From Amyloporia xantha (lineage: Eukaryota; Basidiomycota; Agaricomycetes; Polyporales; Adustoporiaceae): DNA of 64,000 nucleotides. Under the pieces are notes generated by a model. It was not told the DNA's origin. It worked only from the letters and a program-made list of their open reading frames with translations, and did no database searches. The stretch spans positions 434,001 to 498,000 of the forward strand of contig JAYKKR010000005.1 in the NCBI GenBank assembly GCA_036971615.1, written 5' to 3'. Below, piece after piece: positions 38,702-41,266 of this stretch (positions within the stretch are counted from its first letter, which is position 1; every line of letters starts with the position of its first letter). The translations under genes and the position numbers were made by a program.

Positions 38702-39927
38702 TCAAAAGACACCAATCTCCTGACCTAGCGGCACTCCGAGATTACCGTCTAGGTCCCACCCATCTAGCTCCAAGTCCAGAGCCGACGGGAAAGCTAGCGC
38801 GTCCGCGTTCGAATCCATCCCTGCGCCTGCGTCAGGCTGGACATTAGGGAGCATGTCCAGCAGTCTCTGCATCTCCGCATGACCCTCCCAGTCTGCAGCT
38901 CCCGTGGTAGGGATGGTCACCGACGGCGAGGCCCCGGCGGGCGTGGTCGACACAGCCTGCCGAATGGAAGGCGTGATTTCAGGTCCCGACGCTGACTGGG
39001 AACGTGACCGGGAGCTGAAGTTGGGGTGCACAATAGGAAGAGGCGCTGACGGGATGGTGGGAGAGGGCGCGAGTATCTCGCGAAGGAGGTCTTCCATGGC
39101 GACTTCGTCCAATGGTGATGGGGGTTCTTGGTCTGACGGCAGGGTTGACGTCGAAGGAGGTAAAGGGGAGGGATCGACAAGCCCGAATCGAAGTTGTAGG
39201 AGGTTGTCGTCCGACGAGAATTCTGGCCCACCCGCTGCCGGGGCACCGATGATAAAGGAGGGGCATCGGTGCTCACCACCCGTGCTAGGTGGCAAGTGGG
39301 CGCAAAATCGTCGAAGGACGTAGAGGAGGTGTTCGAGTTCGGGCTTGGGGGTCGAGAGAGTGCGGGAGAGATGGGGAAAATCGTTGAGGGTGATGGGGGG
39401 ACTAGGACGGGAAACGTAGTGGTGGGTGGCTGTGAGGATGGCGGTGGGTTGGATGAGGTGGATGAGGATGAGGGAGGGGCGGGTACGTTCATTGGGAGAC
39501 CGGAGGCGGCGAGAGCTTTGACGACGGCATCCCAGCCCGTCTCAAGAGTCTTGATCCTCTCTTTCAGCTCCTCGTTCTCCTTGTCCCTAGCTTTCTCTCT
39601 TTCGCGCTGCTCCTCCACCTTGTCGTCCTCCGCGGCGCGGCGAAGGCCTATGAGGCCCATACCTGCACGGAGCTGTTTGTTCTCTTCCTCCAGTTCAGCG
39701 ACGCGGCGCTCAAGATATGAGAACTGGGCCTTGCGTCGGTCGCGCGAGTTCTGTGCGGCGATACGATTGCGATGGGCACGAGCCTCCCTGCGTTCCTCAG
39801 GAGTGATTTCTGAGCGGGACCGCTTGCGAGGCGGGCCGGCGAGGTCAGAGGAGGACGGTGCTGGTGACTGGGATGATTCGGCGGGCGACGGAGGGTAGTC
39901 AAACTCGGTGTCTGCTGCTCGTTTCAT
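38702..39927 (-). CDS. HAC1: bZIP regulator of the unfolded protein response, HAC1/XBP1/Cib1 type
   Basis: Transcription factor activated in ER stress. Basic region NRIAAQNSRDRRKAQ (residues 54-68) runs directly into a leucine zipper (YLERRVAELEEENKQLRA, residues 71-88), in the Hac1/XBP1 style, followed by Ser/Pro-rich and acidic stretches. Unspliced, the frame runs 336 residues to a stop at 38917. Removal of 47 nt at 39284-39238, a proposed Ire1-type intron, switches after residue 214 into a second frame giving 392 residues and ending LGQEIGVF at 38702. The open frame also extends 5' to 40125 without an ATG, so the ATG at 39927 is taken. Expected to be controlled by IRE1 through that splice. 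Confidence 0.87.
39238..39284 (-). promoter_or_regulatory. Probable 47-nt Ire1-type non-conventional intron of HAC1
   Basis: In transcript sense, a 7-base loop TAGCACG closed by a 5-bp stem (CCACC/GGTGG) lies at the 5' cut, and a 7-base loop CGGCAGC closed by CCC/GGG at the 3' cut. The second matches the C-x-G|C-A-G-C loop of XBP1. Cutting after the third loop base of each removes 47 nt and joins the bZIP frame to the long downstream frame. The ends are not GT-AG. A perfect 8-bp inverted repeat (CACCGATG/CATCGGTG) lies inside. Confidence 0.8.
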
Positions 39928-40474: not shown

Positions 40475-40577
40475 CAGGCTCCTTCCCGCCGTCTTCGGGA
40501 GGTGGGGGCCCATCCGAAAGATTTATGACATACGGAAAACATACCAGCCACACATCGGAACTATCCGAAACTAATTC

Positions 40578-40674
40578 AAACTCCACAATCTTAATCCCCC
40601 TCACCTCCCTACGACGGCTGGCACAAAACATTTGTAAACAAACGGCCTCGGTCAAGGATCGCCTCGATTTGGAA
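40578..40674 (+). repeat. Inner 97-bp inverted repeat, left arm
   Basis: Perfect reverse complement of 41055-41151. The unmatched bases between outer and inner arms (64 on the left, 76 on the right) show the arms are interrupted rather than one continuous repeat. Confidence 0.9.
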
Positions 40675-41054
40675 AGCACGGTTGCCGGAATTCTTCGTGG
40701 CGCGCGGTGGTGGGTCGTACTGAGTAGAGTACAGGACGTGCTGTACTTGACAGTTGACTTCCAAAATTTACTGGGAAAATATCTTTTATACAAAGAAGTA
40801 TATCTGTACCCAGAAGATAGTTACTAATGAGCAGAACAGAGCATTGGTGAGGGTGATTCATGCCAACTTCCTCCTATGGGCCTATTTGTGAATCACGAAG
40901 GGAAAAATCTCTTTATTTTGTATCTTATTTATATTCCTCATGCTTTAAGCATATTACTCAAAAATTTTATAGAGACACAGGCTTGTAGAGTGTTCGAATA
41001 CAGACTCTGTGCACTCGCGCGTGCGCGAGATTTAGTTTTCGCCGCGAAAGAGCC

Positions 41055-41151
41055 TTCCAAATCGAGGCGATCCTTGACCGAGGCCGTTTGTTTACAAATG
41101 TTTTGTGCCAGCCGTCGTAGGGAGGTGAGGGGGATTAAGATTGTGGAGTTT
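41055..41151 (-). repeat. Inner 97-bp inverted repeat, right arm
   Basis: Perfect reverse complement of the left inner arm; together they could fold into a long hairpin with a loop of about 380 nt. Confidence 0.9.
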
Positions 41152-41266
41152 GAATATTCACGTGATTTTCACATGACTATGCACGTGACTTCAGTACCTA
41201 GAATATAGCACAGAGTATTGCCTTAAGATGGGCCCCCACCTCCCGAAGACGGCGGGAAGGAGCCTG

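What the first reader, a model, noticed from the sequence alone, without database searches (positions are those of the whole stretch)
39238..39284. HAC1/XBP1 homolog appears to carry a 47-nt Ire1-type intron, visible from loops and frame
Seen: the bZIP frame and a long downstream frame are offset. Cutting after the third base of loops TAGCACG and CGGCAGC removes 47 nt and joins them exactly, yielding 392 residues instead of 336. The second loop has the C-x-G|CAGC form known from XBP1. Known: HAC1/XBP1/Cib1 mRNAs are spliced by Ire1 and an RNA ligase. The removed length is 2 mod 3, unlike the +1 errors elsewhere in the window, so it is not the same artefact.
Basis: partly seen in the sequence, partly recalled or inferred. 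Interest (0 to 1): 0.85.

Follow-up and report, generated by a model that had tools for sequence, protein, structure and literature searches.

The report
Ire1-spliced intron in mushroom HAC1 gene
A stress-response gene in a mushroom-forming fungus appears to carry a 47-base intron of the special kind cut out by the ER-stress sensor Ire1 instead of the spliceosome; related fungi share it, and its first cutting site departs from the textbook motif.

Summary
A bZIP gene (ATG 39927) reads 336 residues unspliced; removing exactly 39284-39238 (47 nt) gives 392. This is the only Ire1-type hairpin pair in the gene at the thresholds used; 0 of 3000 null genes have one. Of 188 related proteins fetched, 8 read exactly across the predicted junction (7 HLA|AG, 1 QLA|AG), three of them from short contigs that look like cDNA. 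At the 3' loop, unspliced forms carry a CNG-codable residue (L, Q, R) in 100 of 100 usable rows. The genome has an IRE1 kinase-RNase and a Trl1-type ligase. The 5' loop (UAG|CACG; YNG|CNCG in relatives) breaks it at +3 and usually at -3, and is predicted to contract to 5 nt. The flanking exons can pair far better than chance and may hold the cut ends for ligation. The family is known; I did not find the unlike loop pair described in the papers I could search. No RNA from this species was seen.

The parts
39285..39927 (-). First coding exon of the HAC1/XBP1-like bZIP gene, ATG to the 5' Ire1 cut (214 full codons plus one base)
   Evidence: Pfam bZIP_1 E 1.6e-11, above the curated cut-off
39664..39798 (-). 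bZIP domain
   Evidence: PF00170 match in the whole-genome search, G000:C45:473664-473798
39238..39284 (-). 47-nt Ire1-type intron
   Evidence: homologues; predicted product (7 HLA|AG, 1 QLA|AG) in 8 of 188 proteins
39273..39295 (-). 5' splice-site hairpin; loop UAG|CACG at 39287-39281, cut between 39285 and 39284; the MFE pairs U1 with G7, leaving a 5-nt loop
   Evidence: One copy in the genome at up to 1 mismatch, but the backwards control pattern also matched once
39229..39245 (-). 3' splice-site hairpin; loop CGG|CAGC at 39240-39234, cut between 39238 and 39237; canonical CNG|CNGN
   Evidence: only canonical loop with a stem of at least 4 bp in the gene; holding both loops open at 7 nt costs 5.6 to 6.4 kcal/mol over the MFE, in which the 3' loop is 4 nt
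39243..39272 (-). Intron-internal stem, GCACCGAUG paired with CAUCGGUGC (39272-39264 with 39251-39243)
39213..39309 (-). Exon arms either side of the intron (39309-39285 and 39237-39213) that can pair with each other: candidate exon zipper
   Evidence: -25.0 kcal/mol; shuffled arms mean -13.5, 0 of 500 as low; same spacing elsewhere in the gene mean -10.4, 0 of 500 as low; amino-acid-level covariation mixed
38702..39237 (-). Second exon: C-terminal region gained by splicing, to stop 38704-38702
   Evidence: this frame is far more conserved than the unspliced one; 99% identical ORF P0160 in another data set over 66% of this frame's ORF
38917..39237 (-). Unspliced-frame tail (U form), stop 38919-38917
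   Evidence: weakly conserved on the whole

Best explanation
This is the HAC1/XBP1 gene of a mushroom-forming fungus, the counterpart of Cryptococcus HXL1 and Ustilago Cib1. Its mRNA leaves the nucleus with a 47-nt intron still in place and can give a 336-residue U form. On ER stress, Ire1 cuts after G3 in two hairpin loops, a canonical 3' loop (CGG|CAGC) and a relaxed 5' loop (UAG|CACG). The flanking exons pair with each other and stay together, the intron leaves, and the Trl1-type ligase joins the ends. Translation then runs into the other frame and yields a 392-residue factor with a new C-terminal region, presumably the activation domain. Shown here by sequence: gene, frames, hairpins, conservation, predicted spliced products in relatives, presence of IRE1 and ligase, exon pairing by energy. 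Inferred: Ire1 as the cutting enzyme, stress control, cytoplasmic site, zipper function, activation domain.
For: Exact frame join and the only twin hairpin in the gene, 0 of 3000 null genes. Fold z -5.06. Of 188 fetched proteins 137 align over the 5' site: H and A in 137 of 137, R in the 133 that are neither spliced forms nor gapped there, loop position 1 a pyrimidine (codons for L 129, S 7, P 1). 101 of 136 unspliced forms show a 3' motif; the residue before [Q/P]R is L, Q or R, all codable as CNG, in 101 of 101, of which one (P0116) is a spurious match. 8 of 188 proteins carry the predicted product, 7 as HLA|AG and 1 (P0115) as QLA|AG; P0070, P0098 and P0115 come from JGI contigs of 1192, 1398 and 1557 bases, most simply cDNA. 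Dual-frame decoding recovers relatives' DNA over 99, 101 and 39 codon steps. The spliced C-terminal frame is conserved: 8 spliced forms median z 20.5, 13 downstream-frame forms median 17.6, against a median of 3.3 for 89 unspliced tails, 30 of them above 5. IRE1 kinase and RNase; RNA ligase and CPD domains in one locus. Exon arms pair at -25.0 kcal/mol, 0 of 500 controls as low in each of two sets.
Against: No RNA from this species was available. The 5' loop breaks the yeast rule at -3 and +3, and even the relaxed yeast double mutant still needed CNG|NNGN on HAC1-derived hairpins (PMC8104961). The MFE draws a 4-nt, not a 7-nt, 3' loop. The exon-zipper base pair tested fails in 24 of 100 rows. 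In Abortiporus the unspliced tail also resembles the window's (z 10.2). Two relatives (P0116, P0117) have sequences that imply a modelled in-frame intron here. P0115 has Q for H, which would alter the 5' stem. The five spliced NCBI models may be computed, not read from RNA. No Rfam match above chance.
Confidence: 0.94

Rival explanations
1. A spliceosomal intron at this place joins the frames or trims the protein.
For: Proteins of close relatives skip differing pieces here, as if gene models had placed various GT-AG introns. The sequence itself shows GTGAGC...GGCAG, 42 nt, with good-looking ends. 103 GT-AG (40) or GC-AG (63) pairs of 35-150 nt would bridge the frames, 13 of them overlapping the site.
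Against: The 42-nt pair is 0 mod 3 and does not join the frames. Only 3 of the 103 have a GTA or GTG donor, at 39486-39344, 38953-38865 and 38920-38865, none overlapping the site. None of the 13 that overlap it removes 39284-39238, the piece missing from spliced relatives. Models of close relatives disagree with each other, as expected when predictors repair a frame break.
Confidence: 0.03
2. A -1 programmed ribosomal frameshift, not excision, joins the frames.
For: The shift needed (frame 0 to frame 2) equals -1; two in-phase XXXYYYZ heptamers start at 39400 and 39379.
Against: Both heptamers are about 100 nt upstream of the conserved site. Spliced proteins in relatives lack exactly the intron's residues, which frameshifting cannot produce.
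Confidence: 0.01
3. Sequencing or assembly error: a false frame offset in an ordinary bZIP gene.
Against: Unspliced forms with both motifs occur in about 100 other sequences, and both frames decode consistently in Abortiporus and in a Thelephora-like pair.
Confidence: 0.01
4. A decayed Ire1 intron: hairpins kept by descent but no longer spliced, as a review reports for Candida glabrata HAC1 (PMC6116095, passage).
For: Non-canonical 5' loop; no RNA from this species.
Against: The downstream frame stays open for 178 residues and is conserved; loops and stems are intact.
Confidence: 0.02

Closest known systems
Cryptococcus neoformans HXL1 (56-nt intron, Ire1-spliced)
   Same: Basidiomycete bZIP with a short non-spliceosomal intron downstream of the bZIP domain and a new C-terminus after splicing; CAG at the borders (PMC3154848, passages; that paper also named Coprinopsis and Laccaria homologues as uncharacterised)
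   Different: 47 nt here; UAG, not CAG, before the 5' cut in the window (CAG is possible in relatives with S or P for L). HXL1's full loops are in a figure that I could not see
Metazoan XBP1 (26-nt intron)
   Same: Twin hairpins, cut after G3, 3' loop of the CNG|CAGN form (PMC8674358, passages), frame change gives the active factor
   Different: Longer intron with its own stem; 5' loop off consensus; Trl1-type ligase domains found here, RtcB in mammals (RtcB was not sought in this genome)
Saccharomyces cerevisiae HAC1 (252-nt intron)
   Same: bZIP factor; Ire1 with a Trl1-type ligase
   Different: Short intron; no intron to 5'-UTR pairing beyond chance; loop rule CNG|(C/A)NGN of the yeast enzyme (PMC8104961) broken at the 5' site
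Ustilago maydis Cib1
   Same: Basidiomycete UPR regulator (PMC4836707, title and passages)
   Different: Its intron sequence was not seen in any call

Membership tests
HAC1/XBP1-type Ire1 introns | bZIP gene with the intron downstream of the bZIP domain | tested here: met
   Pfam PF00170 at residues 44-88; intron after residue 214
HAC1/XBP1-type Ire1 introns | Two hairpins with the cut after a G at loop position 3, G|C | tested here: met
   the scissile G and C are unpaired at p 0.97 in both loops, though the MFE loops are 5 and 4 nt
HAC1/XBP1-type Ire1 introns | 3' loop CNG|(C/A)NGN | tested here: met
   CGG|CAGC; CNG-codable residue in 100 of 100 usable relatives
HAC1/XBP1-type Ire1 introns | 5' loop CNG|(C/A)NGN (rule of the yeast enzyme) | tested here: not met
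   UAG|CACG: U at -3, C at +3; in relatives the R codon gives C or A at +3. The rule is for one enzyme, so this marks a variant rather than exclusion
HAC1/XBP1-type Ire1 introns | Excision changes frame and gives a new conserved C-terminus | tested here: met
HAC1/XBP1-type Ire1 introns | Spliced product seen at the exact junction | tested here: inconclusive
   Seen in relatives' proteins, 8 of 188, source RNA not inspected; not seen in this species
HAC1/XBP1-type Ire1 introns | Excision depends on Ire1 and rises with ER stress | not testable with these tools
   needs RNA from stressed and mutant cells
HAC1/XBP1-type Ire1 introns | Ire1 and an RNA ligase in the same genome | tested here: met
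   (the best ligase match reads through 2 TGA, probably an intron)
Spliceosomal intron | GT-AG or GC-AG ends that remove the piece missing from spliced relatives | tested here: not met
Promiscuous (S. pombe-like) Ire1 RNase | D/E at Sc 992 and K/R at Sc 1059 | tested here: met
   T, D and K at Sc 988, 992 and 1059, counted by hand on the alignment; rule from PMC8104961. Sc R1039 (RNA binding) is K here

The most novel reading that the evidence does not exclude
Ire1 of mushroom-forming fungi splices HAC1 at two unlike sites: a canonical 7-nt 3' loop, and a clade-specific contracted 5' loop (YNG|CNCG, closed by a Y1-G7 pair, 5 nt open) that the yeast enzyme should refuse. A relaxed-specificity Ire1 accepts it, and a conserved exon-exon stem outside the intron holds the cut ends. 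The asymmetry would order the two cuts.
Probability: 0.42. Interest if true: 0.6.

Novelty: new variant of a known kind. Interest (0 to 1): 0.45.

Why it matters
It pins down the Ire1 intron and its exact ends in the UPR factor of a large fungal class. A polypore genome paper reported no clear Hac1/Xbp1 orthologue although Ire1 and Trl1 were present (PMC4101180); a protein of Trametes cinnabarina, P0034, is one, with a wrong intron model. UniRef already names many of these proteins 'X-box-binding protein 1', so the homology itself is not new. The junction gives a direct RT-PCR readout in mushrooms used for enzymes and food. The off-consensus 5' loop makes the open question of what Ire1 needs in a loop testable with natural substrates.

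Tried and rejected
Rfam gave only chance-level matches. A PDB sequence search of the protein gave none. No DNA of relatives was found in viral contigs or genome contigs, so relatives' DNA was inferred from protein pairs in two frames. A yeast-like block of translation by pairing of intron and 5' UTR was not supported: -33.8 against a shuffle mean of -35.4 kcal/mol. A -1 frameshift and spliceosomal splicing were rejected. Copy number of the 5' hairpin was no evidence: the backwards control also matched once. My first regex for the 3' motif wrongly took 'APRL' inside the intron in 13 rows; it was corrected. Row P0116 is a spurious match and was dropped. In one search two further rows were skipped because their residues were not in my base table, S was read as TCN, and I had seen the pattern before testing it. 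The '13 tails' are downstream-frame forms only; its regex missed the spliced forms, which adds. That intron lengths are 2 mod 3 in unspliced forms is by construction, since both motifs were sought in one frame; the free tests are the residue identities. The query stretch itself holds the motif and a score cut was used. The first constrained-fold attempt did not apply its constraints; one search replaces it. Only the listed rows of protein searches (120 of 439, 120 of 497, 34 of 34) and of paper searches were seen. Assignment of species to Agaricomycete orders is general knowledge.

Full report
What is there. The feature lies on the minus strand. A bZIP gene starts at ATG 39927. Unspliced, its frame runs 336 residues to a stop at 38919-38917. 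Removing 39284-39238, 47 nt, gives 392 residues ending at 38704-38702. The bZIP domain is solid (Pfam PF00170 E 1.6e-11). The ends are ...CCTAG|CACGGG...CCCCGG|CAGCGGG.... Because of repeated bases the junction could slide over four positions, none of which has GT-AG, GC-AG or AT-AC ends (read from the sequence).

Is it more than chance. Folding 121 nt gives -59.5 kcal/mol, z -5.06, 0 of 200 shuffles as good; the opposite strand gives -54.7, z -3.15, as expected of inverted repeats. Scanning the 1226-nt gene for a 7-nt NNG|CNNN loop on at least 7 bp and a CNG|CNGN loop on at least 5 bp, 18-120 nt apart and 2 mod 3, gives exactly one pair, at 39284/39238; 0 of 3000 order-1 Markov genes had any. 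The thresholds were set after seeing the stems. The 17-nt 5' hairpin occurs once in the 46.8-Mb genome at up to one mismatch, but so does the backwards control, so that says nothing.

Relatives. The spliced protein finds 439 proteins, 120 listed; the best is from Laetiporus sulphureus at 60% identity over 93%. Two more searches raised the set to 188 proteins. Sorted by motif: 8 spliced forms (7 HLA|AG, 1 QLA|AG), 136 forms with H-[L/S]-A-R, 13 with the downstream frame read through the site, 31 others. Of the 136, 101 show a 3' motif and the residue at loop positions 1-3 is L 76, Q 22, R 3, all codable as CNG; one of the 101 (P0116) is spurious. The other 35 skip differing pieces at the site or, in one case, end early. 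An alignment that does not require the motif, though its query holds it, covers the 5' site in 137 of 188: H 137, A 137, R in the 133 that are not spliced or gapped there, and L 129, S 7, P 1 at the codon whose middle base is loop position 1. The R codon lies wholly inside the intron, so the spliced protein cannot explain its conservation; the RNA, or the unspliced protein, must.

Relatives' DNA without DNA. Unspliced proteins and downstream-frame proteins are two readings of one stretch. Intersecting their codons returns the window's own bases apart from one ambiguous position and the last base, and gives consistent DNA over 99 codon steps for Abortiporus biennis (P0048 with P0033), 101 for Thelephora terrestris P0109 with a JGI protein (P0145) and 39 for Trametopsis cervina P0052 with P0092. 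Introns are 47, 50 and 47 nt. The 5' loop reads UAGCACG in the last two; the Abortiporus decoding begins at its G. The 3' loops are CTG|CAGC, CAG|CAGC and CTG|CAGC. Where decoded, 5' stem changes against the window are one-sided and pair-preserving (G-U to G-C, U-G to C-G); the 3' stem is weak, and Abortiporus has a mismatch at its third pair.

Spliced products. LA|AG is what the proposed cut and ligation predict. Five come from NCBI-annotated genomes (P0004, P0008, P0011, P0023, P0076), whose basis I could not see. Three come from JGI contigs of 1192, 1398 and 1557 bases (P0070, P0098, P0115); an open frame through the junction on such a contig is most simply a cDNA, an inference. The downstream frame is the one under selection: against the window, 8 spliced forms score a median z of 20.5 and 13 downstream-frame forms 17.6, all above 11; 89 unspliced tails score a median of 3.3, 30 above 5. 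In the Thelephora-like pair the same DNA scores 15.7 in one frame and 0.3 in the other; in Abortiporus 35.1 and 10.2.

Machinery. G000 holds one IRE1 locus with a kinase (PF00069) and a KEN RNase (PF06479, 159.4 bits) and one locus with the RNA ligase (PF09511, best match read through 2 TGA, probably an intron) and CPD (PF08302) domains of a Trl1-type ligase; the kinase domain of the ligase was not sought. Aligned to the solved yeast enzyme (2rio, 3fbv; numbering counted back from residue 1115), the RNase keeps the catalytic histidine (Sc 1061) and has T, D and K at Sc 988, 992 and 1059, and K at 1039.

How it works. Passages of PMC8104961 state that yeast Ire1 needs CNG|(C/A)NGN. The K992D/Y1059R mutant needed CNG|NNGN on HAC1-derived hairpins but little more than G|C on BIP1-derived ones, and took several loop sizes. 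175 of 230 orthologues have the D/K-type pattern. The 3' loop here (CGG|CAGC) satisfies the strict rule. The 5' loop (UAG|CACG) breaks it at -3 and +3; in relatives with S or P for L, -3 becomes C but +3 stays off. The MFE pairs position 1 with position 7 and leaves AG|CAC open; U-G and C-G both allow that pair. So I propose that a relaxed Ire1 cuts an asymmetric pair of sites. The D/K pattern is common and the mutant data cut both ways, so it permits this reading and does not prove it.

Exon pairing. The exon ends can pair at -25.0 kcal/mol over 25 nt each. Shuffled arms average -13.5 and gene pieces at the same spacing -10.4; 0 of 500 of each are as low. This recalls the 'RNA zipper' named for XBP1 (Peschek 2015, title seen in a reference list; paper not held). 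The base pair testable from amino acids forms in 76 of 100 rows against 67.3 in shuffles, p 0.0007 without correction for relatedness; 33 of 52 after collapsing, against 26.9, p 0.009. T-A, C-G, A-T and G-C types all occur, and 24 of 100 rows do not pair. I noticed this pattern before testing it and count it as suggestive.

Against known systems. It meets the tested features of HAC1/XBP1-type introns except the strict 5' loop. HXL1 of Cryptococcus (56 nt) is the nearest characterised case (PMC3154848, passages), and that paper already listed Coprinopsis and Laccaria homologues as uncharacterised. The Pycnoporus genome paper reported no clear Hac1/Xbp1 orthologue (PMC4101180, one passage); P0034 of Trametes cinnabarina (the same fungus under another name, my knowledge) is one, with HLAR|LEL in place of the expected junction. 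My paper searches (only the listed titles were seen, 20 of 156, 16 of 16, 9 of 9, 12 of 154, 10 of 10 and 10 of 57) showed no description of an Agaricomycete Ire1 intron or of a YNG|CNCG loop. They cover open-licence papers only, and the key survey (Hooks and Griffiths-Jones 2011) is not held.

Verdict. It belongs to a known kind, in a class where it seems poorly described, with a departure at the 5' loop shared by the relatives examined that makes it a variant.

Noticed in passing
window 40475-41266: A 792-bp MITE-like element with 40-nt perfect terminal inverted repeats and inner 104-nt inverted arms (99%), starting about 550 bp upstream of the HAC1-like ATG; seven full-length matches at 96-100% identity (this one included) and three more at 81-83% in the genome, plus many fragments.
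   Followed up: partly
window 39276-39235: A good-looking GT-AG pair (GTGAGC...GGCAG, 42 nt, 0 mod 3) overlaps the Ire1 intron; the sequences of two relatives (P0116, P0117) imply in-frame introns modelled at this site.
   Followed up: partly
proteins P0001-P0040: Public proteins of this orthologue often look mis-modelled at this site, skipping several different pieces, which may explain why Hac1 was reported missing in a polypore genome.
   Followed up: partly
L012 (G000:C11:306500-313500), minus strand: The IRE1 locus: kinase exon and RNase in two exons separated by a short intron, with an upstream ORF that weakly matches beta-propeller families, as an Ire1 luminal domain might.
   Followed up: no
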